This document shows, one piece after another, positions 10,092 through 29,867 of a stretch of DNA of 64,000 nt; positions within the stretch are counted from its first letter, which is position 1, and each line of letters starts with the position of its first letter. The stretch is taken from assembly GCA_021733925.1 (NCBI GenBank), contig JAIPJY010000017.1:1-64000 (forward strand). The letters are read 5' to 3'. The stretch comes from Prosthecobacter sp. Its GTDB lineage: Bacteria > Verrucomicrobiota > Verrucomicrobiia > Verrucomicrobiales > Verrucomicrobiaceae. The position numbers were made by a program, and so were the translations under genes. The notes below the pieces were generated by a model. It worked only from the letters and a program-made list of their open reading frames with translations. It was not told where the DNA came from and searched no databases.

Positions 10092-11024
10092 ATGAGTGAT
10101 GCCCTCCCACCCCTGAATGGTCTTTCCCTGGACCGCTTGCGCAACTTTCTGGCCTTCGCAGACAAGGGCTCCATCGCCAAGGCGGCCCCTGACAGTCTTG
10201 CCCGGCAGGCGCTCATCAGCAGGCAGATCGGGGAGCTGGAGCAATACTTCTCCACCGAGCTCACCGTCAGGCGCGGGAAAACCCTGGCGCTTTCGGAAGC
10301 TGGCGAAGATTTGGCGAATCTCGTGAGGTCACAATTTCAGGACCTTGAGGGGTTTCAAAAGAAGCAGCGCGGCCAGCGCAGGACCTACAGCATCGGGGCC
10401 GGCGCGAGCGTTCTGGAGTGGCTGGTGGTGCCCTGCGTGTCCAAGATTCGGAGCTTGCTTGGGGACTCCGCCCTGCGGCTCTCCTCACAGCGCAGCCGAG
10501 AACTCGTGGAGAGCATTCGAGACGGGCAGCTCGATTTTGCCATCGTCCGTGATGATGCCATTTCCGAGGAGTTGAGGCTCAATTCGAGTCTGCCGCTGCG
10601 CAAGCGTGTGGACTTCTCACTGTGCGCCTCCCGCAAGTTGCTAGGCGCCAAGCCCATTGCTGTCCTCGGTGACCCTGCTCAATGGCAATCACTGCCCTTT
10701 GCGGCCAATGGCGGTGGAGGCCAGCTGGACGCAACTTTTCGGGCGGCCATGACCGCCGCTGTCGGAGAGTTTCATCCCGTGGTGGAATGTGATTCGATGC
10801 TGCAGGTGCGCGAGTTGATCGTACAGGGAGTCTGCGCAGGATTGCTGCCCTCCTTTGGAACTCACGGGTTGGAAGAGCACCAAGTCGTGATGCGCGAATT
10901 TGCTCCCATGAAGGATTTTGGGCGCTCCCTTGTGCTGCACTGGAACGACCGTCAGATGCGCCGGCGTGGGGTAGGGGAGCCTGTGATCAAGGAAATCGTT
11001 GTTGAACTCAAAGCGGGTTTTTAA
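10092..11024 (+). CDS. LysR-family transcriptional regulator
   Basis: 310 residues, the family's normal size. The N-terminal helix-turn-helix is recognisable (LDRLRNFLAFADKGSIAKAA ... ISRQIGELEQYFSTELTVRR), followed by a linker helix and an effector-binding domain. It is divergent from the phosphatase operon and runs tail to tail into the kinase gene, with which it overlaps by 17 bases. The effector is unknown. It is the only DNA-binding regulator close to the CRISPR locus, but its own promoter lacks the operator motif found there. Confidence 0.92.
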   Translation: MSDALPPLNGLSLDRLRNFLAFADKGSIAKAAPDSLARQALISRQIGELEQYFSTELTVRRGKTLALSEAGEDLANLVRSQFQDLEGFQKKQRGQRRTYSIGAGASVLEWLVVPCVSKIRSLLGDSALRLSSQRSRELVESIRDGQLDFAIVRDDAISEELRLNSSLPLRKRVDFSLCASRKLLGAKPIAVLGDPAQWQSLPFAANGGGGQLDATFRAAMTAAVGEFHPVVECDSMLQVRELIVQGVCAGLLPSFGTHGLEEHQVVMREFAPMKDFGRSLVLHWNDRQMRRRGVGEPVIKEIVVELKAGF

Positions 11025-11544
11025 GAGAGGCAAGGATAGTTTCAACGACATCCGTTTCCTTGAGCGTGTCGGTGATGACCTTCAGGTCATATTGGGCGAG
11101 TTCGGTGAAATCAAAACCATAGGAGGCCAGCAGCCGGTGGCGCATTTTCTGGTTGCGGGCCTCAATGGTTTTGCCCGTCTCGTCCTTCCGGGCGGCGACA
11201 CGGCAGGCGGCGACTGCATCCGAAACTTCAAGAAAAAAGCTGCGGGCGCCGGGGAAGAAATGAACACCGAGACGGTAATCCAGCACCAGGCCCATGCCCG
11301 CTGCGGCCCTGGCCGAAATGTCCTTCACGAACCAGTCGTCAAGGTGCGCGTCCATCTCGGGGTGAGGTTTGCAATAATCTTGGAACTGATTGATGTCCAT
11401 GCCGTGATGGTCCCTCGCATAGTTGCGGCTGAAGTTGCCCATCGACACGAATTCGTAGTTAAGTGACGTGGCAAGCAGCCGACCAATCGTCGTTTTGCCG
11501 GAGCCGGCTTTGCCGCTGAGGATGATTAGGGGTTCGCAGCTCAT
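11008..11544 (-). CDS. Cytidylate-kinase-like P-loop kinase
   Basis: 178 residues. A Walker A loop GKAGSGKTT lies at residues 11-19. The next block (VSMGNFSRNYARDHHGMDINQFQ..PEMDAHLDDW) matches the layout of archaeal-type CMP kinases, where an NMP-binding helix follows 'sxGdxFRexAkerGmsleEf' and 'npeiDxxlD'. It is predicted to phosphorylate CMP, UMP or a related nucleotide with ATP. It lies on the same strand as the CRISPR locus, 117 bases beyond the oldest end of the array. It is preceded by the same operator-like motif as viperin and the cmr genes. Viperins make ddhNTPs from NTPs, and nucleotide kinases are known viperin neighbours, so a supply role is likely but unproven. Confidence 0.85.
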   Translation of the reverse strand: MSCEPLIILSGKAGSGKTTIGRLLATSLNYEFVSMGNFSRNYARDHHGMDINQFQDYCKPHPEMDAHLDDWFVKDISARAAAGMGLVLDYRLGVHFFPGARSFFLEVSDAVAACRVAARKDETGKTIEARNQKMRHRLLASYGFDFTELAQYDLKVITDTLKETDVVETILASLKNPL

Positions 11545-14652: not shown

Positions 14653-15678
14653 TCAGTTCCGGATTTCATCAGGATCAAGATGGTAGGGAATGAATTCGGC
14701 CAGTGTGCCGGCGGTGGCGTGTTTGGCGAAACGCTCCACCTCGCGCAGCATGAGCCCGCCAGGTGAGGGCTGGTCGCGGCCGAGGGTGTCGTCGCAGACA
14801 TTGACCCATTCCACGAGCACATTGAGCACGGCCGCACGGCCCTCCGGACAGATGCGCACGCCGTTGGCGGCACCTTCAGGCTCATGGAAATGCTCTTGCT
14901 TGAGCGTGCCGAGATTAAGCAGACGCAGCATGAGGCGGTCGCCCAAAGCGGGACGGAACGGCTCCAAAAGATCCATGACAAGCGCGGGGCGGCGGTCGTC
15001 AGGCTGATGCAGATAACCGATGTAGGGATCGAGACCGACGGCTTCGGTACAGGCGAGGATCTGATGCGAGAGCACCGCGTAACTGTAGGAGAGGACGGCG
15101 TTCCCTGGATCGCGCGGCGGCCTGCGGTTGCGCCCCGAGAAGGTGAGCCACGGCGTGCGCAGCATGTGGCCGAGAGCTTCAAACCAAAGACGGGCGGCAC
15201 TGCCCTCCACACCTAGCAGCCATGGCAGATTGTCGGTTTCAAAGACTCGATCGCGAAAGCCGCCGAGATCACGGATGATTTCAGACAGGCGTTCGTCTTT
15301 GTAATTGCTGAGATATTTGCGCAGGACGGTGATGCTGTTGGCAATCTTCGCATCCACCCAGCGGCGGGCGAGTTGCTGGCGTACGGAGGGATCGAAGTGG
15401 GCGGCAGCCTGCCCTAGGCGCATGTGCGGCTTCGGCTTCCAAGGAGCGACGAGCCGGGCCTGCACACGCCCCTCCCTCCCCAAAAAGGTGACGGGAATGC
15501 CCATGGTCCCGAGCCTGTCCAGAGCGATGCGGGTAATCTCCACGCCGTGCTCTACGATGACTTGCTCGACCATGGTGGGAGGAATGCGCCCGATGCGCCG
15601 ACCATGACTGCGCAGGGTGAAGTAGCTGCTGTCCACAGCGAGCGTGGTGTCGGGATCGCGGATGTAGATGGTGGGCAT
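14653..15678 (-). CDS. cas1: CRISPR integrase Cas1
   Basis: 341 residues, the normal Cas1 length. The three metal-binding positions are in place: Glu158 in LLGVEGSAARLWFEAL, His224 in GYLHQPDDRR and Asp236 in ALVMDLLEPFRP. With Cas2 it should insert new spacers at the leader-side repeat. No reverse transcriptase or Cas6 is fused to it. Its start lies 5 bases after the stop of the preceding coiled-coil membrane gene, which puts adaptation genes at the end of the viperin operon. Confidence 0.98.
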   Translation of the reverse strand: MPTIYIRDPDTTLAVDSSYFTLRSHGRRIGRIPPTMVEQVIVEHGVEITRIALDRLGTMGIPVTFLGREGRVQARLVAPWKPKPHMRLGQAAAHFDPSVRQQLARRWVDAKIANSITVLRKYLSNYKDERLSEIIRDLGGFRDRVFETDNLPWLLGVEGSAARLWFEALGHMLRTPWLTFSGRNRRPPRDPGNAVLSYSYAVLSHQILACTEAVGLDPYIGYLHQPDDRRPALVMDLLEPFRPALGDRLMLRLLNLGTLKQEHFHEPEGAANGVRICPEGRAAVLNVLVEWVNVCDDTLGRDQPSPGGLMLREVERFAKHATAGTLAEFIPYHLDPDEIRN

Positions 15679-15683
15679 GTGTA

Positions 15684-16193
15684 TCAGGATCCAGTGGTAA
15701 TCTCCAGGTCTCGAATCAGGGATGTCTTTTGCCGAAGCCCTAATACTCCACGTATTTTCCCGCCGAGGTTTCTGAGCAGAATGAGCGGTGGCAAGCGGCC
15801 ATCCGCCTCCTGGCTGACGAATTCTCTGGCATGCTCCAGGGCACGCAGCCAGGCCTGAGCGAAATGAGGCATCTCCGCTGTCAGTCTTTCGGCGGCCAGT
15901 TCATAAATTTTGAGGTGCTGCCCGGCGAGCCGGTCCGGTCGCATCAGCAGAATGGAATGCTGCATTTTTAGATGGGCTTTCTCCTCCTCCAGGCGCTTGT
16001 TATCGGCTTCCAGTTTGACCAAAATTCGGGCCTCCTGAAGGGACTTGGCGGTGAGCAATTGTTCGAGCCGCCGGACCTCCTCACGCAGTTCGTCGCGCTG
16101 GGTGGCAAGGATGCTGTGGGAACGGCGAACGGAAAGATACATGACGGTGGCAGTGGCGAAGATGAGGCCGATTGCGAAATAAAGGAGGAACAT
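15684..16193 (-). CDS. Membrane-anchored coiled-coil protein, viperin-cas1 operon
   Basis: 169 residues, family not recognised. An N-terminal hydrophobic helix (FLLYFAIGLIFATATVMYL, residues 2-20) is followed by basic RRS, so the chain probably stays cytoplasmic. About residues 25-80 form a strong coiled coil (RDELREEVRRLEQLL ... EADNKRLEEEKAHLK). The C-terminal part is helical and ends in ITTGS. It sits 27 bases after the previous gene and 5 before cas1. A scaffold or sensor at the membrane is a guess. Confidence 0.8.
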   Translation of the reverse strand: MFLLYFAIGLIFATATVMYLSVRRSHSILATQRDELREEVRRLEQLLTAKSLQEARILVKLEADNKRLEEEKAHLKMQHSILLMRPDRLAGQHLKIYELAAERLTAEMPHFAQAWLRALEHAREFVSQEADGRLPPLILLRNLGGKIRGVLGLRQKTSLIRDLEITTGS

Positions 16194-16220: not shown

Positions 16221-17039
16221 TCAATTAGAAGCCTGCGAGGAGGATGGGGGGCGGGCATGAGTGAGGCGTCTGGAACGCAGAAGCCAGAAGAGCGCCAGAG
16301 GCAGGGTGACAGAACCGAGCATCAAGCTCATAGAGACACCGGTTCCGGCCTTGCTGAAGAACGTCGTCATCGCCTCGGTGGGAATGCGGTGGGGCAGGAG
16401 CCGTGTGCCTTCCTCGACACCATCTGCCACTTTGATCATGCTAACGGTGAGACCGCCGGTAAGGATCAAAGTTTTGTGCTGGTCCAGCTTGCGCAAAAAA
16501 GCCGCGCCGTTCTTCTTCCAGGATTCCAGCAGAACCAGGCGCGTGGCAGGGCTGTCCGCACGAGAAGCGTATCCTACCAGCTGTGTGATCTCGCTTGAGG
16601 GTGCTTTGGCGAGAACGGCAAACTCCCCACGTCCGAACTGAGCGACCGCCTGCTCTGCCATGCCGGGAACCCTGGACTCGAGACGCAGGGCGTCGTCGCT
16701 ATAGCGGGTAATAAGACCGAGCGCCTCCGCAGGGCTAGCACCGAGGTATCGCGTGGCCTCCGGGACGCGCCGGGCCGCTTTCAGGATATCGTCGCCATGC
16801 TTTGCACCGGCTTCGAGCAGTTCGAGTCCGCCGCGCTCGACGAGTTCCTCCGCGCCCGCCGCTCCGAACTTGCTGATAGCAGTGGCGGCGGCATGCTCGG
16901 CCGCGTCGCGGGCACCGGCTTCGAGTGTTTCACGTCCTGCCTGTTTGATGGCCTGCGCCACAAGTTTTCTGGCCACGGGATTGGCCTGCAGAGCGGAGGA
17001 GCTGAGGAGAACAAGGGTGAAGAAGAGCGTTGATTTCAT
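16221..17039 (-). CDS. Secreted, C-terminally membrane-anchored unknown protein
   Basis: 272 residues with a clear signal peptide (MKSTLFFTLVLLSSSALQANP, probable cleavage after ALQA). The middle is Ala-, Glu- and Gly-rich and helical, from about residue 30 to 190. A C-terminal hydrophobic helix (SMSLMLGSVTLPLALFWLL) is followed by basic RSRR, so most of the protein should be periplasmic with its tail in the membrane. No domain is recognised. It starts 4 bases after the stop of the gene upstream in the viperin operon. Confidence 0.8.
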   Translation of the reverse strand: MKSTLFFTLVLLSSSALQANPVARKLVAQAIKQAGRETLEAGARDAAEHAAATAISKFGAAGAEELVERGGLELLEAGAKHGDDILKAARRVPEATRYLGASPAEALGLITRYSDDALRLESRVPGMAEQAVAQFGRGEFAVLAKAPSSEITQLVGYASRADSPATRLVLLESWKKNGAAFLRKLDQHKTLILTGGLTVSMIKVADGVEEGTRLLPHRIPTEAMTTFFSKAGTGVSMSLMLGSVTLPLALFWLLRSRRLTHARPPSSSQASN

Positions 17040-17043
17040 TGGA

Positions 17044-18237
17044 TCAGGAGTGAGGGGTGGTGAGCTGGGAGGGATTCAGGGCAAGCAGAGACGCGACAGC
17101 CTTTTGGCGTGCCTTCACGGCTTCCGCGAGTATGCGGGCGGCTTGCTGATCATACTGAGCCAGTGCCTGCTCGTAGACGCTCGCCAGCCCCTCACGGAGG
17201 CTGTGGGCCACCTTTCCGGGGAGCTCGCGGCTGAGCCAAAAGATGTCCCAAGCCGTCCATAGGCCGACGCCGATGTCGATGAGGAGACCGACAATTTCTC
17301 CGAAAGGAAGAGGCCCGTCGGACACGGCAAGGGCAATGTTTGCGCCTACCGCGGACGCAGCCCTCTCGGCGTAGCCACGCAACACCGGCAGGAGAAGTTT
17401 GTGGTTCAGAGTGGCAGCGAGGGCCACGTCCAGCGCGCCGAAGCCGATAGCGTTTTTCAGCTCGCGAAAATGTCCGTCCACGGACCCGATCATCTGCGCC
17501 ACCGGCTGCATCACATTGCCTCCAGGCGCGCCAGCGGGCAGCTGCTCCGCGCCCTGCAGCCAATCCGCCGCAAGCTTGTTTATGCGACCGCTGACCTTGT
17601 GGGAGAGTGTGCTGAGCTCGGAGAGCGCCAAAGACTGCATTTGAGTGGATGCCACGGCCACCTGGCCCAGGCGCCCGGTGATGAACTCCTGCGCACTCGA
17701 TGTGCCTTTGATCATATCCAGAGCCTGCCGCACGATGATGTGGAAGCAGTCGGAGAAGCTGCCGAGATCACCGCTGGCTTGCGGGACTGCGGCCAGGGCG
17801 GCGGCATAGAACGGCTGCAAACCACGCACGAGACTGGCGCGATGCTGCTTCATTCCAGCGAGATCCTCAGCTGTGGCACCTTCGAGGCTGTAGCGCACGT
17901 TGCCCTGAAACTTCTGGAAAGCCTCACGCTGACGACGCTCGAGATCGTAGATCACGGCCATGCGCCAGCCCAGCAGGGACGTCACCGTGCAGGCAAAAGC
18001 CCCTGGAATGAAGGCGCGGCGCTTCCACAGGCGCACCGGTTCAGCTGAAGCTTTCACCAACTCCGAGGAGTTCTGGACGCCCGCAAAGATGACATCCCCA
18101 GCGGAATTCACTTCAAGCAGGGGTGAAGATTCATGGGCAATGGCGGAATCGGTATGGGAGGTGTTCATGGCGTTGGAAGCGGCGGAGGTTTTCATGGCGA
18201 AAAAGTGCGAGTAGTGGTTTCGGAACGAATATCTCAT
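17044..18237 (-). CDS. Unknown membrane protein directly after viperin
   Basis: 397 residues with no recognised family. Two hydrophobic stretches flank a long helical region: about residues 77-97 (IPGAFACTVTSLLGWRMAVI) and about 315-335 (IVGLLIDIGVGLWTAWDIFWL). The part between contains many Ala, Gln and Ser and may lie outside the cytoplasm. The ATG at 18237 overlaps the viperin stop by ATGA, which is why it is preferred over in-frame ATGs 14 and 23 codons later. The overlap implies coupled translation with viperin. Confidence 0.8.
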   Translation of the reverse strand: MRYSFRNHYSHFFAMKTSAASNAMNTSHTDSAIAHESSPLLEVNSAGDVIFAGVQNSSELVKASAEPVRLWKRRAFIPGAFACTVTSLLGWRMAVIYDLERRQREAFQKFQGNVRYSLEGATAEDLAGMKQHRASLVRGLQPFYAAALAAVPQASGDLGSFSDCFHIIVRQALDMIKGTSSAQEFITGRLGQVAVASTQMQSLALSELSTLSHKVSGRINKLAADWLQGAEQLPAGAPGGNVMQPVAQMIGSVDGHFRELKNAIGFGALDVALAATLNHKLLLPVLRGYAERAASAVGANIALAVSDGPLPFGEIVGLLIDIGVGLWTAWDIFWLSRELPGKVAHSLREGLASVYEQALAQYDQQAARILAEAVKARQKAVASLLALNPSQLTTPHS

Positions 18238-19187
18238 GCGTTCACGGTGCGGGCGAAGACCGGGACATCCGCAGACAACTCCGGTGTGCCTTGCCCGGTG
18301 AAATCGTAGCTGCCACCGCGCTGCTCGAAGGCCACGCGATCAAACGACACCTGGGCAAAAGCGAGCGCCACGCCCGAGTTCAAAATGGGCGCGCTGTAAG
18401 TGTGGCGCCCGGCACTGCTGTCGAAGAAGCGACCCTGCGGATCGATCATGGCGTAGCTGCCGCGAATGGAGGTGACGGGCTCCGGCACAACACGAATGCC
18501 CGCTTCAGCCACACGATGGTGCCGGGCCACAAAAGCGTCGAACTCCGGACGGGTGACCGACAGCAGATCCATGTGCGCGTCGTTCTGCCCTTCGACCGCC
18601 ATGACCTGCAGCACCTTCCAGCGGGCGATGCCGCTGTCGGCGATGAAGCCGCTCATGTCCTCGCACTGGTTGATGCGATTCACCACGGTGTTGATCTTCG
18701 TGCGCAGGCGCAGCATCGCGGCCTCCGCGAGAATTTGCCCATAGGCTTTCGTGCCCAGAGGCTGGCCTTTGGAGTCATGGCGGCCGATGGCGCGGTTCGT
18801 TTCCGCATCGAGGCTGTCGATGCTGACAGTAAGCCAGTCGAGCATCGGTGCCACGCGGCGCAGGTAGTCCGGCGTGCAACGTGAACCGTTCGTGACAACC
18901 ATCGTCACCAGACCACAGGCCTTGGCATGCGCGATCAGTTCCGGCAGCCACGGGCAGAGCGTCGGTTCGCCGCCGGCGAAGGTGAGCTTGCGCGCCGTTT
19001 TCCCCAGCGGCAACGGAGCCGCCGCGATGGCCTCCACGATGGAGAACATTTGCTCCCGTGGCAGCATGACCCCGCGCACGGAGGGATCCTCATCAAACGT
19101 GGCGTAGCAACCCTTGCAGCGGAAGTTGCAGTTCTTGTTGAGGTGGTAGTTGACGGCTTCGGGGAGGAGGGCGGTGTGCATGCACAC
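18234..19187 (-). CDS. Prokaryotic viperin (radical SAM ddhNTP synthase)
   Basis: 317 residues. The radical SAM cluster motif CNFRCKGC (Cys20, 24, 27) sits in NYHLNKNCNFRCKGCYATF, very like the animal viperin start 'NYHFTRQCNYKCGFC'. The GGEPT motif is at 72-76. Viperin-specific blocks follow in order: NRAIGRHDSKGQ, KINTVVNRIN, RWKVLQVMAVEGQN, VPEP, SYAMIDPQGRFFD and FEQRGGSYDF, each with a clear counterpart in vertebrate viperin. Viperins dehydrate CTP, GTP or UTP to 3'-deoxy-3',4'-didehydro-NTP chain terminators and are known antiviral enzymes in bacteria. Here it is the first gene of an operon ending in cas1-cas2 and has its own upstream operator-like motif. A MoaA or anSME assignment is excluded by the viperin blocks. 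Confidence 0.93.
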   Translation of the reverse strand: MCMHTALLPEAVNYHLNKNCNFRCKGCYATFDEDPSVRGVMLPREQMFSIVEAIAAAPLPLGKTARKLTFAGGEPTLCPWLPELIAHAKACGLVTMVVTNGSRCTPDYLRRVAPMLDWLTVSIDSLDAETNRAIGRHDSKGQPLGTKAYGQILAEAAMLRLRTKINTVVNRINQCEDMSGFIADSGIARWKVLQVMAVEGQNDAHMDLLSVTRPEFDAFVARHHRVAEAGIRVVPEPVTSIRGSYAMIDPQGRFFDSSAGRHTYSAPILNSGVALAFAQVSFDRVAFEQRGGSYDFTGQGTPELSADVPVFARTVNA

Positions 19188-19300: not shown

Positions 19301-20449
19301 TCAGTCCAGAACGATGTTTTCTGGCACGAGGTCCAGGGAGAAACGCCTGTCCTCCGGCAGCACCACTATCAGCGGACGGGTGCGAATGCCGCCCTCTTCC
19401 AGCCGGTCCTTCAGACTGGAAACATGCTTAGTGATGAATCGTTCGTCGATGGCAGCATAACCACCTTTGGGCTTAGCCTCGCAGCGCCAGTCGCGGAAGT
19501 CATTTTCATTGTGCTGCTCGAAGATGCGTTCCGCAACTTCCGCAACTGCTTCTGCCGCGCCGCCCCACCCATGAATTGGCGGCTTGCATGCCTGGGCACG
19601 CTCGGCCGCACAGCGCATGATCAGGTACTCATTGACCGCCAATTTCACCCGCTGGTCGTTGATGATGGCGACCGGCTCGTCAGCGAGCATCCTCAAACGC
19701 GCGGTCGCACGCACATAGTCCCGAGCGGGCATGGAGGCGCGTTGCACCACATCAGCGAAGGTCCCTGTGGCCTGGCCGACATCGCGGGCGAAAAAGTTTT
19801 GCAGCACTGGGAAGGGAATGTCCGCGAGCTGGATGCCAGCTTCCTTGCTGGAGTGTGTGCTGATAAGTTCACCGAGCTGATTGCGCAGCTCGTGATTCAC
19901 CGCAGGCTGGGTGGGGAAGAAAAACGGCGGTGTCAGCCGGGCGTCGAAAGGCTCGCGCACGAGCACATGGGTCAGGCGGTCCAGCGGCCTGCCGAGCAGT
20001 GTGACGGCGGCATAAAGCAGGGCCCCCATGCTTTTGCGCCCTCCGGCAATCGAGGCGATCAGCCTCTTTTCCGGTTCATTCACAATAGCCCGCACCTGGT
20101 TCAAAATGTAGTTGGCTGCAGCAATGTTGTCCTCCGGTGTGCGGATGTCTGGCAGCGGCACCGTCTTGCCTGCGGCCGTGTCAGGCACGTTGATCACGCT
20201 GTAGTCTTGCATGATCAGCTCGTCAGGCTGCGCACCCACCGCCTCACGCAATGCTTCCCACACTTTTCGCCCGCCAAAGTGGGGCGAGGCGGTGAACAGC
20301 TCACGATCCAGTGCCTTCACACCCTCGGATGTGGTAATGAGAACCACATGGTTCGGCACCACACTCGGTGTTTCATGAGCCAAGGCCCAGACCGTCTCGG
20401 TGACGATGGCAGGTGACATGCCGGTGACGGCGAGGAACGTGGTGGACAT
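19301..20449 (-). CDS. CARF-domain CRISPR protein, NE0113 family
   Basis: 382 residues. The N-terminal half is a CARF (cyclic oligoadenylate sensing) domain: first strand and loop FLAVTGMSPAIVTETVWAL, and the second signature SIAGGRKSMGALLYAAVTLLGR. This matches the CRISPR-associated NE0113 family. No RX4-6H HEPN ribonuclease motif is evident in the C-terminal half, so its output is unclear; it could be a weak nuclease, a ring nuclease or a transmitter. The ATG at 20449 is chosen because it starts the first CARF strand. It is the third gene of the card1-csx3 unit. Confidence 0.88.
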   Translation of the reverse strand: MSTTFLAVTGMSPAIVTETVWALAHETPSVVPNHVVLITTSEGVKALDRELFTASPHFGGRKVWEALREAVGAQPDELIMQDYSVINVPDTAAGKTVPLPDIRTPEDNIAAANYILNQVRAIVNEPEKRLIASIAGGRKSMGALLYAAVTLLGRPLDRLTHVLVREPFDARLTPPFFFPTQPAVNHELRNQLGELISTHSSKEAGIQLADIPFPVLQNFFARDVGQATGTFADVVQRASMPARDYVRATARLRMLADEPVAIINDQRVKLAVNEYLIMRCAAERAQACKPPIHGWGGAAEAVAEVAERIFEQHNENDFRDWRCEAKPKGGYAAIDERFITKHVSSLKDRLEEGGIRTRPLIVVLPEDRRFSLDLVPENIVLD

Positions 20450-20524
20450 GATGGGGAAATGACGAATTAAGAAATCCAAATGACGCAGTATTAAGGCCAC
20501 TCGGGCGGAGCTGAGTGGGATAAT

Positions 20525-20767
20525 TCAATGCGGGTTGTGATCGAACACAACGACTGGCCCGGTGACAGGCGAGTCATAGGTCAGTATGCGGGCGATGCCG
20601 TGCAGGGCGTGGGCGATCCGCAAGTAAAGCCAAATTGGGCCAGGGCCGGTGAGAGTCACATCCGCACCTCGCGGCACAACCGTCTTCACCTCTAACTCAT
20701 AAGCAGGCAGGTCGGCGAGCTTGGCGGTGCCAGTGGCAGCATAGAGCGTGGAGAGGTCGAGGGTCAT
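20525..20767 (-). CDS. csx3: Csx3-family protein (Crn3-type cA4 ring nuclease)
   Basis: 80 residues. The segment GPGPIWLYLRIAHALHG followed by ILTYDSPVTGPVVVFDHNP matches the core of Csx3 (compare GRGPIWLHCFLAHKYHH ... YDPRLGAVVVQSH in the archaeal protein). Csx3 degrades cyclic tetra-adenylate and so switches off type III signalling; that is known for the family. This copy is near the short end of the size range and ends shortly after the last motif. Its start overlaps the stop of the Card1-like gene by ATGA. Confidence 0.88.
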   Translation of the reverse strand: MTLDLSTLYAATGTAKLADLPAYELEVKTVVPRGADVTLTGPGPIWLYLRIAHALHGIARILTYDSPVTGPVVVFDHNPH

Positions 20768-21993
20768 CGGGAGAAAATGCCGGATTGATAGACATTATCG
20801 CCTGTAATGAGGCGAATGCCGAGCTTGGCAGCCTGCTGTTGAAGGTTGGCTGCCACTTTCCCGTGGGGTGGTTGAAGGACAGCCAAAAAGCGGCGATTGA
20901 AGCTGCCCCCCATGGTGGCGGCACGGGCTCGCACCTCCTCCAGGAGGGGAAGCAAACGAGCCTTAGCGCCACCACGTTTGCAGTTGATGTAAAGAAGCTC
21001 CACACCGTCGACGCCAAGAATGTCCTCCTCGGTGTCGGGGCCGTTGCGCTCACCAACCTGGGCAGACCAGCGGAGATCACGAAAAAGGGAGCTCTTCTGT
21101 GCAGCATCACTGACGATGACCTCCCACCAGGCTCCGGTCAGGAAAGCTGCAGCCTGTTGTATGGGGGCCACAGCTTTGAAGTAACGTGCAGCGAAGTCAG
21201 GGACCTGATGGTTGACTAGGTGATCCAACTCAGCGCGGGTGGAATTTGGCAGCAGGACTTCAGAATCTGAGGGACCGGGGCGCACCAAATCAGCCTCGAC
21301 CGCGAGCATGGCGACAGGAGCTGGCAACCGGATGGGTTTGTCCAGTATTGGAAGCCAGTCCTTCGGCGTGCGTGGTTCCAGACCTTTGGGGAAAAGACCC
21401 GTGGGACCGTGAACAGCGGCATGGGTGGCCTCCTCGTCTGAAATGTGGTTAAAAAGGTGCTCCGCCAGCGGCAGCATGACTTGCCAGGACTCGCCACTGG
21501 TGATGCGGGATACGCCGTTGGCGATGCCCAGGACGTCCACCCGCAGTTGATTGCGAATGGGAGTGAAGCTCCAGTCACCAGAGAGTAGCGTGCTCATTTC
21601 AGGGCTGGTGGCCCCATCCACGAAGCAGGCGTCCTGGGTGTCAACATACAGAGAAGGCACTTTCTTTGTCTGCGCGGCCGCAAAGGCACCAATACTCATG
21701 AGTTTGGTGCCACCGGTGAAGTTGACCACTGTTTGCATGCCCTCCTTGGATTTAGACAGAGCTTCTGTCACTACATTAAAACACTCGGGAATTCCCGGCA
21801 TGTCTGAAAGCTGAATGGACTCCGACTCGGGATCGATACCTGCCGCCTTGGCTGCTGCTTTCAGCACCGCAGAACGTGCTGCAGTCCTGGGCGTGACAAG
21901 GTGGACAAGCTTTTGTGGCTTGAGGCGGAGAATTGGCAGGAGGTTTTGAATGGTCTGCTCGCTGATGAGCTGGATGAGCGTTGTAGGTTGCAT
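20764..21993 (-). CDS. Card1/Can2-like CARF nuclease
   Basis: 409 residues. The N-terminal CARF-like domain shows LVHLVTPRTAARSA and VVNFTGGTKLMSIGAFAAA (about residues 29-107), the DUF1887/Card1 layout. The C-terminal third is a restriction-endonuclease-like fold with GAWWEVIV (about 287-294) and EEDILGVDGVELLYINCKRG (321-341). In a PD-(D/E)xK core the position two before the Lys is normally Glu; here it is Asn337 before Cys338-Lys339, so catalytic competence should be checked. Known relatives are activated by cA4 to cut ssDNA, ssRNA or nick dsDNA. An operator-like motif precedes the gene. Confidence 0.9.
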   Translation of the reverse strand: MQPTTLIQLISEQTIQNLLPILRLKPQKLVHLVTPRTAARSAVLKAAAKAAGIDPESESIQLSDMPGIPECFNVVTEALSKSKEGMQTVVNFTGGTKLMSIGAFAAAQTKKVPSLYVDTQDACFVDGATSPEMSTLLSGDWSFTPIRNQLRVDVLGIANGVSRITSGESWQVMLPLAEHLFNHISDEEATHAAVHGPTGLFPKGLEPRTPKDWLPILDKPIRLPAPVAMLAVEADLVRPGPSDSEVLLPNSTRAELDHLVNHQVPDFAARYFKAVAPIQQAAAFLTGAWWEVIVSDAAQKSSLFRDLRWSAQVGERNGPDTEEDILGVDGVELLYINCKRGGAKARLLPLLEEVRARAATMGGSFNRRFLAVLQPPHGKVAANLQQQAAKLGIRLITGDNVYQSGIFSR

Positions 21994-22248: not shown

Positions 22249-23124
22249 TTAACGCCGACGTGGGGGGGCGGTTGGGGCCGGGCCTTCAAATAGCTTTGGA
22301 ATCAGTATTTTTGAAGTCGATCGACCTAGGACTCTGTTGTGTGGGGCTTCAAGAGCGACCCACGTCAACTGGCCGGTTTCTAACAGCAAAGGACGGAACC
22401 GGACGGCGCTGGCCTGCCGTGGTTGAATACCTCCGAGCGCCGAATACCGTTCAGCTTTGTGTTCCTTTCGAAGTTTGTGGCGAAGCCAGGCACTCCAGTC
22501 ACGCAGCGCTGACTCCCAGGTGTTGAAGCTATCTGGTTGTGCTCGAAGGCACACCTGAAATCCAGCTTCCGTCAGAGGCCGGATCAAGTCACGCCAAGGC
22601 TTGGATTGCTTGCAGTAGAAGGCACCCAACCCCCTGGTCGCTCGAAGACCGATTGTTCCGAAACAAAGGAAGGCCGCCAAGGCAAGGTCCAGTCGTTCTT
22701 GCAGTTGATGACTGAGCGGTCGAATTTGAGTAATAACTACATTAAAGCTCGATTTCGGAGGAATAGCGCCTTTTGGCTGCCACCTTGGTCCTGTGATTTT
22801 AGGGCCGGCATTGGCGGGCTTGCCTGAGGCGGAGGCAAAATGCCAAGTGTAGTTCTCATCGCTATTCTGATCGATGATTGGAGGGTTCCAGACGGGTCCG
22901 CGTCTGTAGTCTGCAATGACGATTCGTAATGCACTACCCACGCCTGCTTCACCGGCGACAGCTCCAAAAACGGCGGTTTCATCGGCAGCGTTACCTCCTA
23001 GTGCACGAAGCCACCATCGAAGTTGACCGCGAATACTGGGTGCTCGAATTTCCGCCTCCGCAGGATTGGCCCCGGCGCAGAAGCAGGGCGTAATAAGTTC
23101 GAGGGTGTATGTTTGTCGGGTCAT
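22249..23124 (-). CDS. cmr1: Type III-B RAMP protein Cmr1
   Basis: 291 residues. The RAMP start YTLELITPCFCAGANPAEAEIRAPSIRGQLRWWLRAL is the hallmark of Cmr1, with later glycine-rich GLRATRGLGAF. In the Cmr complex Cmr1 caps the end of the backbone near Cmr6 and the crRNA 3' side. The start overlaps the Cmr6 stop by ATGA. The C-terminus stops in a run of seven C (minus strand), and the sequence beyond reads as plausible protein in another frame, so the annotated end may be an artefact or a real frameshift. Confidence 0.94.
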   Translation of the reverse strand: MTRQTYTLELITPCFCAGANPAEAEIRAPSIRGQLRWWLRALGGNAADETAVFGAVAGEAGVGSALRIVIADYRRGPVWNPPIIDQNSDENYTWHFASASGKPANAGPKITGPRWQPKGAIPPKSSFNVVITQIRPLSHQLQERLDLALAAFLCFGTIGLRATRGLGAFYCKQSKPWRDLIRPLTEAGFQVCLRAQPDSFNTWESALRDWSAWLRHKLRKEHKAERYSALGGIQPRQASAVRFRPLLLETGQLTWVALEAPHNRVLGRSTSKILIPKLFEGPAPTAPPRRR

Positions 23125-24521
23125 GGCATCTTGCCGAGGTTGAGGGTTTTGCTGAGGGAGCGAATGGCCTGGTCCACGGTGGCCAGATCCCCCTTGGTGG
23201 CCTTGGACTTAAAGTCCTGCCAGTAGGCAAGGCGGGAGCCACGGAGAGCACGCAGGATGGCAGGTTTTTCTGCATCAGTGGGCCCTCCTTTCTTTGGATC
23301 TTTGCAGAACGCCCTGACTTTTGAATCGAACTGGCCATCGCTGAGGAGTTCGATTTTCTTATCCTCTCTCTCCTCCGGACTCAGTCCTTCAAGGGCGGCT
23401 TCGAGCTCTGCCTTTGCAGCTGCCTTGGCCTTCGCCTCTAAATCTTGACGAGCTTTCAACTCGGCAGCCGCCTGTTCTTCTCGACGTCTCTTTTCAGCCG
23501 CCGCCCGATGTTCGAGTACCGATTCGTTGAAAGATTCCGATGCATCAAACGAGCCATAGCCCGCGTTAGCCTTGGCTCCGATACCAAATGTCTCAAGACC
23601 CGTGCGAAGCGCGCAAACAGCAAACGTCAAAAGAAGCTGATTTGCGTTCCGCAGAGGGATTAGCGGAAAGGTGAAACAGTCGTGCTCTCGTTGTTCTTTG
23701 ATGGCGGGGAAAAGCACTGGAACAGGTTCCTCCGTGTCGGCGGCTACGGCATTGGGATTGGTGCTTTCGTAATATGCGGTGTGATGAGGGGTGAGGATGT
23801 CTAGAACCAGCCCGGGATCACGGTTGGGGCTGGCATGGAGGAAAGCGATGCAGCCGGCGAAGTTTGGCAGAGAGTCCCACGGACGTTCCTCATTGCCAAT
23901 CGCTGCGTCGAGTTGCTCGCAAAGCATACATGCGGATCTCACAAAGACTTCGCCCGGACCTGCGCATGCCCAAACAAGATCAGACACCCAGTTGCCCCCT
24001 TTGTTCTTTTCGGTGCTCCAGTCCTGTTCCACCCAGCCGAAGACGAGACAAACGCACGTGAGAAGTTCCTCTGGAGTATTGAATACAAGGCAGAGCGGTG
24101 TGAACAGGTTGTCATCGCCGTTCGGCTTTACGCCACTTTCGCACCATTCTCGTAGAGCTGCGAGTGCGGCACGGCGTGCACAGCCTTTGACGGCACTACC
24201 AGGGATGATGGGAAGGCCGTAGCGGTCCAGCGTCAACCCGGCATTCTCCATGACGCCATTGGCCATGCCCACCATGAGCCGGGAAAGCAAGCGGCCATGA
24301 AGAAGGCTCGCGGTGGATGGGTGCCAAAGCTGTGAGGTGACGGGGGGGCTTGCATTCTTTGAAATGAAAGTATCAAACCACGTTTTTCGGCTTCCCTCTT
24401 TGGAGGTAGGATCAGCGAAACGGGCTGCGAACAAGGAGCGACTCTCACAGCGCTCCGCCCGGGAACCAATGACTTGGGCCGTGTCTTGAGGAAGATGCAG
24501 GGGCATGGCAGTTTCAGTCAA
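23121..24521 (-). CDS. cmr6: Type III-B RAMP protein Cmr6, with long C-terminal extension
   Basis: 466 residues. The core block NAGLTLDRYGLPIIPGSAVKGCARRAALAAL is the typical Cmr6 motif, and FGIGAKANAGYGSF is the glycine-rich loop. Family members are commonly about 300-350 residues. Here the last roughly 130 residues (from EHRAAAEKRRREEQAAAELKA on) form a charged coiled coil followed by a helical domain, which is unusual. It should form part of the backbone cap with Cmr1. The stop of Cmr5 is upstream with ATGA overlap. Confidence 0.93.
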   Translation of the reverse strand: MTETAMPLHLPQDTAQVIGSRAERCESRSLFAARFADPTSKEGSRKTWFDTFISKNASPPVTSQLWHPSTASLLHGRLLSRLMVGMANGVMENAGLTLDRYGLPIIPGSAVKGCARRAALAALREWCESGVKPNGDDNLFTPLCLVFNTPEELLTCVCLVFGWVEQDWSTEKNKGGNWVSDLVWACAGPGEVFVRSACMLCEQLDAAIGNEERPWDSLPNFAGCIAFLHASPNRDPGLVLDILTPHHTAYYESTNPNAVAADTEEPVPVLFPAIKEQREHDCFTFPLIPLRNANQLLLTFAVCALRTGLETFGIGAKANAGYGSFDASESFNESVLEHRAAAEKRRREEQAAAELKARQDLEAKAKAAAKAELEAALEGLSPEEREDKKIELLSDGQFDSKVRAFCKDPKKGGPTDAEKPAILRALRGSRLAYWQDFKSKATKGDLATVDQAIRSLSKTLNLGKMP

Positions 24522-24880
24522 ATGTTGGCCGGCTTCTTCGCAAAGCGCTTCAGATAGGCAAGAAAGGCGAGTGCCTCTGTGGTGGCCCGTTGGAGTGCCA
24601 GGCTGTTCTGCCCAGCCAGATCAGTGATCAGGCTCTGGCCGGTTGAGGCATTGGTAAGACCCCGTGATTTCAAGAAATCAGCAATGGCGTTGAAGGCGTT
24701 CTTCATACCCACTCTCTTTTCCTTTCCGTCTTCGCAACAAAATGCGCCAGCAGCGAGGAGACCGCTGGTCAGAATTAGCGCAGGAATGCCTACAACGTCG
24801 CTGCGATTGAAAGGGTGGATTCCGCCCTCTGGCAAAACTTTCGCTGCAGCAGCAGCACGAACTTGGTCGAGGTTTTTCAT
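24518..24880 (-). CDS. cmr5: Type III-B small subunit Cmr5
   Basis: 120 residues, all helical, as expected for the Cmr small subunit that lines the target RNA path. Order between cmr4 (5 bases upstream) and cmr6 (ATGA overlap) is canonical. Sequence signals are weak, as is normal for the family: an N-terminal helix KNLDQVRAAAAAKVL and the region ILTSGLLAAGAFCC. Confidence 0.87.
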   Translation of the reverse strand: MKNLDQVRAAAAAKVLPEGGIHPFNRSDVVGIPALILTSGLLAAGAFCCEDGKEKRVGMKNAFNAIADFLKSRGLTNASTGQSLITDLAGQNSLALQRATTEALAFLAYLKRFAKKPANI

Positions 24881-25877: not shown

Positions 25878-25894
25878 GGATGTCCGGGGATGTC
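25878..25894 (-). promoter_or_regulatory. Operator-like motif, cmr4 copy
   Basis: On the + strand GGATGTCCGGGGATGTC. It overlaps the last codons of cmr3 (stop at 25893) and lies 44 bases before cmr4. A regulatory site inside an otherwise tight cmr operon is unexpected unless it controls a new transcript. Confidence 0.6.
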
Positions 25895-27248
25895 ATTCGG
25901 GACGCTTGCCGTCGTGGAACTGCCAGGTGCCGCAGACGCCAAGACCGAAGCCTTTCTCGCCCATGAGGGTGGAGCGGCGGTTGCAAATTCTGGTGGCATC
26001 GCCGTCACCGTGCCAGTTGAGTGCGGCGGCGAGCGCCTTGGCCGCGGGTTCGTCATCGCATTCGAAGTAGTATACACTGCCGGCAGGCACAGAGAGATGG
26101 GTTGATTTGGGGCCGCCGTCCTGGCGGTCGGGATCGAATTCATTTGGAAGGGCGTAGCCGGTGACCGGGATAGGTTTACCGGTGATGGAGGCGACGAGGG
26201 TGGCGGCGATTGGCTTTCCCTCAGGCACTTTGCGTCGCTTAGCGGCATTCTTGCCCGGTCCGTCTAGGAGTTGAACCTTGCCTGCCGTGTCCACCCAGGA
26301 CGGAAGCCATCCACCTGGGTGGTCACCTATTTTGGGGAAGATGGCTGGCGTTAGCAGGACCCATTTGACCAGATGCTTGCCGGAGGCTGCTTTGAAACCA
26401 GTCTTTATGCCGATGGGCAAGGGCAAGGGCGAGGTGCCACCGCTTTGGCGTATGACGGTGCAGACGCGCTGCTGGCCACCGACAATGACAGGGGTTTGGG
26501 TGCCGCTGTTGGGAAAGACGGCCTTCACAAGGTCGCTATTGCCGTTCTCACCCCGGAAGTCTTTGTCCGGGGCCTCAGCAAAGCAGCCCAGACGCCAGCC
26601 TTCGCGCAGGCGGAGGTAGTGAGCGGAGTAGAAGCGTTCGCCGTCCTGAGTGTTGGTGGCTGGGTCGATACCGATACCGAAGGTGGATTCGGTGTTGGCG
26701 AATTCGGCATCGGATTTGAATAAGATCCTGCCGGTATCGGCATCGCGAGGGGTGGCACCGAGGTAGGCAATCCAGGCATCCGCACTCCACCAAGGCTTGG
26801 GCTGGTCCTTGGTGACTGGCCGGGTGCTGGCGACGGCAAAGTGGAGAGGCTTCGCAAGGCTGGAATGTGAGTGGTCAAGTCCCGTTGCCAGGGGAAGAAG
26901 GGATGGCGTTGTGGCGTCAGGGATGCCGGCATCCAGGGGGCGGGGAAAGAACCATGTGGGTGCTTTTCCGTTTGTGCAGACGGGGAAGGGGCCCGCCGTT
27001 TGGAGGGAGCCAAAAAGACGGCCGTTTTTCTGTCGGTTTTCCTCTGAGTAATCGCGTTTTTGCGACGACCTTCCAGGGACATGCGGGTGGACACCCGTGA
27101 GACCAGCCCGGTGCAAGGCCGCATGCAGGGCCGCGTTGGTCACGGTGGGCAGGGGCCATGCGGCACCATTGCCTGCGAGACTGCCTGACATGGGACGGCC
27201 GTCTTTGAAAAAGAGTACGTCGGCGGGATCGAAAAGCAGGGTGTTCAT
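25893..27248 (-). CDS. cmr3: Type III-B RAMP protein Cmr3
   Basis: 451 residues from the ATG at 27248. The N-terminus TLLFDPADVLFFKDGRPM is the Cmr3 signature ('fkdgRp'). Cmr3 binds Cmr2 and holds the 5' handle of the crRNA. The C-terminal GEKGFGLGVCGTW is the family glycine-rich loop. ATGA overlap with cmr2 shows coupling. Somewhat longer than many Cmr3 proteins (about 350-400), with insertions in the middle. Confidence 0.94.
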   Translation of the reverse strand: MNTLLFDPADVLFFKDGRPMSGSLAGNGAAWPLPTVTNAALHAALHRAGLTGVHPHVPGRSSQKRDYSEENRQKNGRLFGSLQTAGPFPVCTNGKAPTWFFPRPLDAGIPDATTPSLLPLATGLDHSHSSLAKPLHFAVASTRPVTKDQPKPWWSADAWIAYLGATPRDADTGRILFKSDAEFANTESTFGIGIDPATNTQDGERFYSAHYLRLREGWRLGCFAEAPDKDFRGENGNSDLVKAVFPNSGTQTPVIVGGQQRVCTVIRQSGGTSPLPLPIGIKTGFKAASGKHLVKWVLLTPAIFPKIGDHPGGWLPSWVDTAGKVQLLDGPGKNAAKRRKVPEGKPIAATLVASITGKPIPVTGYALPNEFDPDRQDGGPKSTHLSVPAGSVYYFECDDEPAAKALAAALNWHGDGDATRICNRRSTLMGEKGFGLGVCGTWQFHDGKRPE

Positions 27249-28987
27249 GCGATGGCAGACAGTTTGGAGGGTTTGGATTCGGGCCGGGTGCGGTGGGCAA
27301 ATGCAACGGTGGTGCAAAGCCCGATGATGGCGGAGAGAAGGGGTTGTGATTCGGAGTTGATGCCACTCTTTCCTACGGTGGGGACCTTCATCAGATAGGA
27401 ACGCAAGGGGACGGAAAGTTGCTGGGCGGCATCCATGGATCCCTGGCGTTCAGCAGCGAAGACAAACTCCTTGTGTATGATGTCGGAGGCAGCGAAGTCC
27501 TCGACGTCCTTCAGGGTTCCGGCTTCTTTAGAAAGGCCGCTGTGTGCGATGAGGTAGGGCTCGAGCATCTGACAGACACGGTAGGGAAACTTGGTGGTGA
27601 GTTGGTTCGTATCGAGCAAAGAGGTGATTCTCTCGTAAAGTTCGACGCCGCCGGAATCCCATCGCGATCCCCACTCGCTGATTTCTCCGGAGCGCTTCAT
27701 CAGGGTGACGGAAAAGGCAGGGCGACCGACGGTGTTCTTGGCGCGTTTCTCGGCCTTTTGAGCGGCGCGGATGAGATCCTGCAACGGGGCGTGGACGTGT
27801 GCAATGACGATGCCGGCGGAGGCATCGGGTGTGGTGCACTGTTTGTCTTTGATGCTCTCGGTGGAGGCACGGAAAGCTGTGCGCAGGGCCTTTGCGCAGT
27901 CGAGGGCCGCATCGGCGGGAACGAGGGCGACAACGTCGTCGCCGCCAGCATAAACAAGGAAGCCGTTGTGGTCGGTTTCGACGATCTTGCGGGCATTATT
28001 CAAAGCAAAGTCGCTCAGAGAATCACTGAGGTTTTGGTGGTGCTTGTGCAAGTCGGTGCCTGGGGAAAGATCCCTGCCATCCACCCATTTGCCAATGGAG
28101 TCGCCGTCGAAGGCGATGGCGGCGACGTATTTGTCGCCGCTGTAAAGTTCAGTGCTGCGAGTATCGTCGAGTTCGGCAGAGCGGGCTGCGATGGCAGGGA
28201 TGGAGCGAATGACGAAATCGTCAGTTCCAGTCTTTAGTCCGTTCTTTCGAAGATGGGTGATATGCCAGACGCGTTTGATGAGGGTGATCGCTCCGACATG
28301 GTCATCGTGTTTGAAGAGGGAGGCAATTTCTCCACCCCGCTTTTGCATGGCCGAGGAAAACCCCGGGCCTCCGCAAAGCGCTTCCTCCCTGCCGCTGAGG
28401 CTGTCCTTTTCTGCACCGACACGCCATTGGCCGCCGCCGGCGGCTTTGAAATCGCGGGTTTGGCGGACGGAATCAAGATGCCAGCCATTATCCCGGTAGG
28501 CTTCGGCGTAGTCACGGCCATTGATGGGGGTGATCTGCCAGGCAATAGATAGGTGTTGGGCTACTTGTAGGTCGAAGATGGCTTTTTTTTCCGGATTGAT
28601 GCAAAGCTCCCCAGCTATGCTCCAGACGGAATGTGCGATATTACTCCACTCCGCTTCGACGGCCATTTTGACTTTTTCGGCGATCCCGAGGGCATCGGTC
28701 GCCAACACTTCTGCGACGAAGAGATTGGGTAAATTCGGCGTGAGAAGATCCTTCTGCAACCTGCCAGACAATTCCTTCCACAAACCGGGATTGCCGAGGA
28801 GCGGCTGCCCATCGGCATTGGGAAAGATTAGATGTCCGCCGTCAGCGATGAGCTTGCGGATGCCGGCTGCTACCAACCAACTGAGCATATAGCTGCCGCT
28901 CCACAAATCGCGGGTGCTCCGCGCTTGAGAAATGAAATCTTGAACAGGTCCAATTTGAAATTTTAAAAGCGCGTAGGCAGAGGACAT
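27245..28987 (-). CDS. cmr2: Cas10/Cmr2, GGDD cyclase without HD domain
   Basis: 580 residues, much shorter than the usual 700-900. The protein starts directly in the first palm-like domain (YALLKFQIGPVQDFISQARS). There is no N-terminal HD nuclease domain. The cyclase signature LVYAGGDDVVALVPADAAL has GGDD at residues 348-351, and AFDGDSIGKW at about 292-301 is the matching metal-site block. It is therefore predicted to make cyclic oligoadenylates when target RNA is bound but not to cut ssDNA by HD. It is first in the cmr cluster, with an operator-like motif 59 bases upstream. Confidence 0.97.
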   Translation of the reverse strand: MSSAYALLKFQIGPVQDFISQARSTRDLWSGSYMLSWLVAAGIRKLIADGGHLIFPNADGQPLLGNPGLWKELSGRLQKDLLTPNLPNLFVAEVLATDALGIAEKVKMAVEAEWSNIAHSVWSIAGELCINPEKKAIFDLQVAQHLSIAWQITPINGRDYAEAYRDNGWHLDSVRQTRDFKAAGGGQWRVGAEKDSLSGREEALCGGPGFSSAMQKRGGEIASLFKHDDHVGAITLIKRVWHITHLRKNGLKTGTDDFVIRSIPAIAARSAELDDTRSTELYSGDKYVAAIAFDGDSIGKWVDGRDLSPGTDLHKHHQNLSDSLSDFALNNARKIVETDHNGFLVYAGGDDVVALVPADAALDCAKALRTAFRASTESIKDKQCTTPDASAGIVIAHVHAPLQDLIRAAQKAEKRAKNTVGRPAFSVTLMKRSGEISEWGSRWDSGGVELYERITSLLDTNQLTTKFPYRVCQMLEPYLIAHSGLSKEAGTLKDVEDFAASDIIHKEFVFAAERQGSMDAAQQLSVPLRSYLMKVPTVGKSGINSESQPLLSAIIGLCTTVAFAHRTRPESKPSKLSAIA

Positions 28988-29414: not shown

Positions 29415-29867
29415 ATGCTCTTCACAGACTTGCACCACAATTTGAATCTCCTTTGGCTATTCCATGCCCGCTCGTGGATTCGCCATCAGATCCCGTTTCT
29501 GGGCAGCATCATCGCGGGCAGGCCTGAGGTTCAAGAGGGGCGGGTGGAAGGCTGTATGGACATAGACTCCGCCACCCTGCAACTGCCCAAGAACGCCCGC
29601 ACCTTTGCTCTGAAGGTCCGGGGAGACTCCATGCGGAACGCTGCCATTCTGGAGGGTGACATTGTCATCATGAAGTTACGGGAGACGAAGCATGGCGACA
29701 TCGTGGCGGCGTTGATCGACGGCGAGACGACTCTGAAGCGTTTCGTTGTGCAAGGCGGCATGCCTTACCTCCGGGCCTCGAATCCGAAGTGCCCTGACCT
29801 CATTCCGGCGCGGGAGCTGGTCATTCAGGGTGTGCTCATCGCGCTTCTGAGGCTTTCCAAGAGTTGA
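29415..29867 (+). CDS. UmuD/LexA-like S24 self-cleaving protein
   Basis: 150 residues with the S24 peptidase layout: an Ala34-Gly35 cleavage site in SIIAGRPE, the catalytic Ser72 in RGDSM and Lys108 in TLKRF. No helix-turn-helix is present, so it is closer to UmuD than to LexA. UmuD-type proteins are cut in RecA-dependent fashion and then assist an error-prone polymerase. It is followed 6 bases later by the polymerase fusion and preceded by a LexA box. Confidence 0.9.
   Translation: MLFTDLHHNLNLLWLFHARSWIRHQIPFLGSIIAGRPEVQEGRVEGCMDIDSATLQLPKNARTFALKVRGDSMRNAAILEGDIVIMKLRETKHGDIVAALIDGETTLKRFVVQGGMPYLRASNPKCPDLIPARELVIQGVLIALLRLSKS

What the first reader, a model, noticed from the sequence alone, without database searches (positions are those of the whole stretch)
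18234..19187. A viperin heads the operon that carries cas1-cas2 of a type III-B CRISPR locus
The protein has the radical SAM CxxxCxxC and every viperin-specific block recalled from animal viperin (KINTVVNRIN, RWKVLQVMAVEGQN, SYAMIDPQGRFFD, FEQRGGSYDF). Prokaryotic viperins are known as stand-alone defence enzymes. Here all spacing from viperin to cas2 is 27 bases or less, with an ATGA overlap at the first junction, so viperin and adaptation genes should share one mRNA. A chain terminator made alongside type III signalling would be a new coupling: ddhNTPs could act on phage polymerases, or ddhATP-like products could even affect cyclic oligoadenylate synthesis by Cmr2.
Basis: partly seen in the sequence, partly recalled or inferred. 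Interest (0 to 1): 0.9.

Follow-up and report, generated by a model that had tools for sequence, protein, structure and literature searches.

The report
Viperin and kinase around CRISPR genes
A bacterium carries an antiviral viperin gene inside a CRISPR immune locus, with the viperin's usual partner enzyme on the far side of the CRISPR memory array, a layout that suggests, but does not prove, that two separate antiviral weapons are switched on together.

Summary
Window 18234-19187(-) is a true prokaryotic viperin (NF038283 286.6 bits, cut-off 180; tree).

(2) Two conserved, predicted membrane proteins of unknown function (orf397, orf272) accompany the viperin and also occur elsewhere. (3) The layout is modular. 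G029 keeps viperin-orf397-orf272 beside a cas1 only 31% alike; G025 has the III-B locus without the cassette; G034 has a cas1 stub and no detected cmr6 or Cas10, yet keeps viperin, companions and kinase in order.

A separate viperin lies between a CARF-like gene and cas1 in G382, but the association is rare. 'Heads the operon' is unproven, and coupling to type III signalling is inference. Best reading: a viperin-kinase cassette lodged in a type III-B locus, probably co-expressed, not a cOA-activated effector.

The parts
18234..19187 (-). viperin (pVip); likely start at the ATG at 19181
   Evidence: NF038283 286.6 bits vs cut-off 180; PADLOC pVip; tree
17044..18237 (-). orf397: helical, one hydrophobic segment at 315-333; conserved family of unknown function
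   Evidence: no Pfam/PADLOC/NCBIfam hit; 85% in G034, 39% in G029 over the matched stretch; 12-row alignment A3; AF2 pLDDT 69.2; hydropathy
16221..17039 (-). orf272: signal-like N-terminus (by eye), alpha-helical body, C-terminal hydrophobic segment 235-253; unknown function
   Evidence: no family hit; 16-row alignment A2; AF2 pLDDT 85.5; hydropathy
15684..16193 (-). orf169: N-terminal hydrophobic segment 2-20; unknown
   Evidence: no family hit; 63% in G034; hydropathy
14653..15678 (-). cas1
   Evidence: PF01867 251.5 bits; TIGR00287
14335..14640 (-). cas2
   Evidence: PF09827 66.8 bits
11662..14173 (.). CRISPR array: 35 repeats of 36 nt, 34 spacers of 34-39 nt; decayed repeats at the kinase end
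11008..11544 (-). viperin-associated kinase (VakA / pVip-kinase; cytidylate-kinase-like)
   Evidence: PADLOC pVip-kinase 6.7e-45, VakA 1.6e-15; Cytidylate_kin2 37.8 bits vs 28; homologue 8-99 nt from viperin in 21 of the 79 listed loci other than G034's
19301..20500 (-). NE0113/CARF5 protein, model named CRISPR-associated ring nuclease Csm6
   Evidence: TIGR02584 177.2 bits vs 80.65
20525..20767 (-). csx3 (ring-nuclease family)
   Evidence: PF09620 36.6 bits vs 21
20764..21993 (-). Card1-like CARF, probable CARF-PD-(D/E)XK nuclease
   Evidence: PF23400 50.9 bits vs 24.6; PADLOC CARF4-CARF_PDDEXK 9e-28
22249..23124 (-). cmr1
   Evidence: PADLOC Cmr1 7.5e-19
23121..24521 (-). cmr6
   Evidence: TIGR01898 84.2 bits vs 51.1
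24518..24880 (-). cmr5
   Evidence: PF09701 55.8 bits
24886..25986 (-). cmr4 (start uncertain)
   Evidence: RAMPs PF03787 71.4 bits; named by order and by 64% match in G029
25893..27317 (-). cmr3 (start uncertain)
   Evidence: PF09700 93.4 bits
27245..28987 (-). cmr2/cas10 with GGDD motif at residue 348
   Evidence: TIGR02577 193 bits vs 79.4; PF22335 111.4 bits; motif

Best explanation
A chain-terminator defence cassette (viperin, membrane-type companions orf397/orf272/orf169, and the viperin kinase) lies interleaved with a complete type III-B CRISPR locus, so that cas1, cas2 and the array sit between viperin and its kinase. Viperin would convert an NTP (CTP favoured, because the kinase resembles cytidylate kinases) into a ddhNTP. 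The kinase would feed substrate or rephosphorylate analogue. The ddhNTP would terminate phage RNA synthesis while Cas10/cOA and the CARF nucleases act on the same infection. The link to CRISPR is most likely co-expression from one long same-strand region, including possible read-through from cas2/array into the kinase, rather than activation of viperin by cOA. Shown by sequence: gene identities, order, spacing, homology of the kinase, recurrence, modular presence and absence, purifying selection on viperin and companions. Inferred: substrate, product, shared transcripts, membrane location and role of orf397/orf272.
For: Viperin identity. Kinase identity. Its homologue sits beside viperin on the same strand with 8-99 nt gaps in 21 of the 79 listed viperin loci other than G034's. 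In the family (68 genomes) 8 have a kinase hit at E <= 1e-3, but the only strong ones are G000 and G034, both viperin carriers. G029 has the order cmr2-3-4-5-6-1, CARF, csx3, NE0113, viperin, orf397, orf272, cas1, cas2, array, without orf169. All 3 viperin genomes of the family carry orf272, which is in 4 of 68. G034 keeps viperin-orf397-orf272-orf169-kinase with a cas1 stub between orf169 and kinase, and no cmr6, NE0113 or Cas10-palm hit. dN/dS G000/G034 is 0.16-0.21 for viperin and 0.20-0.34 for orf397, orf272 and orf169. A separate viperin lies between a CARF-like gene and cas1-cas2-array in G382, whose Cmr genes are on another contig.
Against: Rare: among the 80 best of 344 confirmed relatives in GTDB contigs, only G029's own locus has intact cas genes in the viperin's run, so viperins in general are not CRISPR genes. 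G034 shows the cassette persists without a detected CRISPR effector. The region upstream of viperin shows no evident similarity among G000, G029 and G034, so no shared promoter is seen. G029 has no kinase hit (its contig ends inside the array). dN/dS for the kinase could not be computed. No viperin activity or transcript is measured. The companions have no significant fold match.
Confidence: 0.6

Rival explanations
1. Defence-island stacking: viperin, its kinase and the membrane pair are independent antiphage genes that happened to accrete into a CRISPR neighbourhood; proximity reflects shared horizontal transfer, not shared function or regulation.
For: Viperin-CRISPR linkage is rare; G034 keeps viperin with only a cas1 stub and G025 keeps III-B without viperin; orf397-orf272 also occurs apart from both, in some loci near kinase, phosphatase or VWA genes.
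Against: Overlap or gaps of 27 nt or less from viperin to cas2; the same slot (CARF side to cas1) is used in G029, by another viperin in G382, and by orf397-orf272 without viperin in G351; kinase and viperin are kept on either side of cas1-cas2-array.
Confidence: 0.3
2. Viperin is an ancillary effector of type III signalling, its activity switched on by cOA through a CARF protein or the membrane pair, or its product tuning Cas10 or a CARF nuclease.
For: Position between CARF genes and cas1 in G000, G029 and (CARF call marginal) G382, and on the opposite strand inside a III-B locus of a Pseudomonadales genome, L087; genes for cOA synthesis and sensing present in the window.
Against: No CARF or SAVED domain found in viperin, orf397, orf272 or orf169; most viperin loci listed show no cas gene nearby; cassette retained in G034 without a Cas10 hit.
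Confidence: 0.1

Closest known systems
Prokaryotic viperins with associated kinase (PADLOC pVip, pVip-kinase, VakA)
   Same: Viperin above curated cut-off; kinase of the same family; same strand
   Different: Kinase lies about 6.7 kb from viperin with orf397/orf272/orf169, cas1, cas2 and a 34-spacer array between, instead of adjacent
Type III-B (Cmr) CRISPR loci with CARF ancillary genes
   Same: Cmr1-6, GGDD Cas10, Card1-like CARF, NE0113, csx3, cas1, cas2, array
   Different: Viperin and conserved unknown membrane-type genes occupy the CARF-cas1 interval
Type III membrane effectors (Cam1, Csx23, CorA, Cam2, Cam3; passages of PMC11229360)
   Same: Membrane-type proteins encoded among type III CARF/cas genes
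   Different: orf397/orf272 have no detected CARF or other sensor domain and also occur outside CRISPR loci

Membership tests
Prokaryotic viperin | Radical SAM CxxxCxxC and score above the viperin equivalog cut-off | tested here: met
   C20/C24/C27; NF038283 286.6 vs 180 bits
Prokaryotic viperin | Placement inside the viperin clade, not MoaA/SPASM | tested here: met
   88 viperin rows vs 3 outgroup rows, SH-aLRT 100 (quick method, no eukaryotic rows)
Prokaryotic viperin | Viperin-specific conserved blocks | tested here: met
   GR 135-136, KINT 164-167, WK 190-191, RH 222-223, Y245 invariant in 14 rows; their role in nucleotide binding is recalled, not tested
Prokaryotic viperin | Forms a ddhNTP | not testable with these tools
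   needs enzyme assay
Viperin-kinase pair (pVip with VakA) | Kinase of the viperin-associated family in the same locus | tested here: met
   pVip-kinase 6.7e-45, VakA 1.6e-15
Viperin-kinase pair (pVip with VakA) | Kinase adjacent to viperin | tested here: not met
   separated by cas1-cas2-array in the window and by 2.7 kb in G034
Type III-B CRISPR-Cas | Cmr2/Cas10, Cmr1 and Cmr3-6, array | tested here: met
Type III-B CRISPR-Cas | cOA synthesis by Cas10 | not testable with these tools
   only the GGDD motif was seen
cOA-activated ancillary effector | CARF or SAVED sensor on the effector | tested here: not met
   none in viperin, orf397, orf272, orf169 by PADLOC, Pfam, NCBIfam at E <= 0.001

The most novel reading that the evidence does not exclude
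Viperin is a regular, if rare, arm of type III-B immunity: target recognition or pre-crRNA transcription raises viperin and kinase output, so that chain-terminating ddhNTPs act on phage RNA synthesis while cOA nucleases act on nucleic acids, and the orf397/orf272 membrane pair adds a third effect at the envelope.
Probability: 0.25. Interest if true: 0.85.

Novelty: new variant of a known kind. Interest (0 to 1): 0.62.

Why it matters
If co-expressed, adaptive RNA-guided immunity and a small-molecule chain terminator would work as one locus, and whether prokaryotic viperins are constitutive or triggered would become testable in a defined system. The locus also defines two conserved uncharacterised protein families (orf397, orf272) found with viperin, with cas1 and, in other loci, near kinase or phosphatase genes. 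In nine literature searches of the held open-access library no listed title or abstract opening described a viperin inside a type III operon. Searches listed only part of their hits, most listed papers were not opened, and subscription papers are mostly not held, so this is weak evidence of novelty.

Tried and rejected
MoaA/SPASM mis-annotation: rejected. Chance adjacency in one MAG: unlikely, since G029 shows the same order in another species. Viperin as a general CRISPR gene: rejected. Fold-based function for orf397/orf272: the AF2 models gave no PDB match at E <= 0.001, and the rows listed have TM-scores under 0.3, so those resemblances are not used. Promoter/terminator consensus scan: totals equal shuffles. 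Region upstream of viperin in G000, G029 and G034: no evident similarity.

Errors and drops on the way: the wrong reading frame was taken for the G025 cas1, corrected (75% to G029). In one search the iterated 'kin' profile drifted into viperins, which I put down to a viperin-kinase fusion entering the profile, so its 'kin' rows are ignored and kinase counts come; the same call seeded its CARF profile with the G382 gene, so that hit is not independent. In one search dN/dS failed for viperin G000/G029 and for the kinase pair. In one search the truncated viperin of G321 was left out. In one search four of the 80 GTDB loci (L092, L098, L115, L148) gave no extractable viperin; L078 and L079 were dropped as duplicates of L004 and L003.

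Full report
WHAT IS THERE. The ORF at 18234-19187(-) is a viperin by curated HMM (NF038283 286.6 bits, cut-off 180), by PADLOC pVip (8.5e-82), by solved-structure neighbours and by tree. NCBIfam also reports MoaA and SPASM models, but far below their cut-offs. The gene sits in one same-strand run: cmr2 27245-28987, cmr3, cmr4, cmr5, cmr6, cmr1, a Card1-like CARF gene, csx3, NE0113/CARF5, viperin, orf397, orf272, orf169, cas1, cas2, then a 35-repeat array and a kinase at 11008-11544. The gap between NE0113 and viperin is 113 nt here and 75 nt to the matched start in G029, so viperin may belong to the cmr transcript as easily as head its own.

THE KINASE. The 178-aa protein beyond the array matches PADLOC pVip-kinase (6.7e-45) and VakA (1.6e-15) and Pfam Cytidylate_kin2 above cut-off (37.8 vs 28 bits). 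The GTDB scan confirmed 344 relatives of the viperin query and kept the best 80; by tblastn the kinase hits 24 of these 80. Leaving out L078 (= G034, 2.7 kb gap) and two weak hits (L127, L150), 21 loci have it on the same strand 8-99 nt from viperin. In the 68 genomes of the family 8 have a hit at E <= 1e-3, the only strong ones being G000 and G034. It is therefore the viperin partner, here parted from viperin by orf397, orf272, orf169, cas1, cas2 and the array. The repeats nearest the kinase are decayed (6, 2 and 1 mismatches), which suggests (inference) that the leader lies at cas2 and that array transcription runs toward the kinase.

COMPANIONS. orf397 and orf272 have no Pfam, PADLOC or NCBIfam match at E <= 0.001. 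orf272 homologues are in 16 of 387 phylum genomes (own included; two weak, with an internal stop) and 4 of 68 family genomes (own included). Of 15 fetched orf272 loci outside the genus, several on short contigs, orf397 was found beside orf272 by tblastn in 12. cas1 follows on the same strand in 2 (L180, L183), viperin is present in 1 (L067). In ten proteins chosen from these loci, kinase, phosphatase, VWA or GTPase domains were found in L176, L179, L181, L182 and L186. L180 shows a Card1-like nuclease end, orf397, orf272 and cas1, with no viperin. AlphaFold models (pLDDT 69.2 and 85.5) have no significant PDB match.

MODULARITY. Viperin above cut-off: 3 of 68 family genomes and 13 of 387 phylum genomes; 7 of 384 class genomes match at E <= 1e-40. 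The samples overlap and yield 16 different viperin genomes. All 3 family viperin genomes have orf272; by hand the chance is 4/50116, ignoring relatedness. cmr6 is found in 5 of 68, weakly in G025. G025 (87% complete) has cmr2 to cmr1, a CARF remnant, NE0113, cas1 and cas2 but no viperin over cut-off and no orf272, with about 250 nt between NE0113 and cas1. Its cas1 is 75% identical to that of G029, whose locus has viperin-orf397-orf272 in that gap; the window's cas1 is only 31% identical to G029's while the viperins are 80% identical. G034 keeps viperin, orf397, orf272, orf169 and kinase in order, with a cas1 stub of about 31 codons; it has no cmr6, Cas10-palm or NE0113 hit, and no cas2 hit in the fetched 20 kb. 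The stub argues for loss of cas1 there; loss of the Cmr genes is inferred. dN/dS G000/G034: viperin 0.16-0.21, orf397 0.20-0.23, orf272 0.31-0.34, orf169 0.21-0.22, LysR flank 0.10-0.12. So the cassette persists under selection without a detected CRISPR effector.

RECURRENCE. Of the 16 viperin genomes in the phylum, viperin shares a same-strand run with cas1 in 3 (G000, G029, G382), is followed by a cas1 stub in 1 (G034), and lies about 4.2 kb upstream of a type III-C-like locus on the same strand in 1 (G419; PADLOC Cas10c 2.9e-42, but no PF22335 hit). In the other 11 no cas gene was found with my queries in the stretches examined; G106, G321 and G115 are cut short by contig ends. In G382 the order is a CARF-like gene, viperin, a 259-aa ORF, a NusA_N/AAA protein, cas1, cas2, array; the CARF call is marginal (PF23400 25.5 vs 24.6 bits; PADLOC 5.9e-7), and the Cmr genes are on another contig. 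The G382 viperin falls in another branch than the window's, with moderate support, so the two are probably independent. Among the 80 GTDB loci (which include G029, G034 and G356 of this phylum), L087 (Pseudomonadales) has viperin inside a type III-B locus on the opposite strand, L085 has cas1 about 7 kb away, and L119 has an array about 7 kb away. The link is thus real but uncommon. A control with other defence genes was not run.

READING. I favour a viperin-kinase cassette co-expressed with, but not signalled by, the type III-B system. Evidence for function is only comparative. No CARF or SAVED sensor was found on the viperin or its companions, so direct cOA control would need another step. 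Defence-island stacking remains a serious rival.

LITERATURE. I saw search listings (some searches listed part of their hits, none) and passages of PMC12988326, PMC8649781, PMC11291487, PMC11229360 and PMC11084316. The main text of the type III effector survey PMC11229360 holds the word viperin zero times. Bernheim 2021 is not held; that viperins make ddhNTPs and pair with kinases is recalled knowledge, in part borne out by PMC11084316 (chain terminators) and by PADLOC model names.

Noticed in passing
window 29874-34145 (+): A 1423-aa protein joins a Y-family polymerase (IMS, IMS_C) to a DnaE-type polymerase (PHP, DNA_pol3_alpha, finger, HHH_6) in one frame, after an S24 peptidase (UmuD-like) gene at 29415-29867. 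Near full-length copies occur twice more in this genome and in other genus and order genomes; 7 of 19 genomes, own included, match at E <= 1e-100, so the fusion is not an assembly error.
   Followed up: partly
L176, L179, L181, L182, L186: orf397/orf272 pairs (in L186 only orf272 was detected) in loci that also hold protein kinase, PP2C, VWA or dynamin-like GTPase genes, hinting at another conflict system.
   Followed up: partly
L064:6382-7593: A protein with a NusA N-terminal domain fused to an AAA ATPase lies between viperin and cas1 in G382.
   Followed up: no
L069:9271-10653: Viperin fused to its kinase in one protein in G167, homologous to the window's separate viperin and kinase.
   Followed up: partly
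L087:10001-10849: Viperin on the opposite strand inside a type III-B locus, between CARF genes and cas1-cas2, in a Pseudomonadales MAG.
   Followed up: partly
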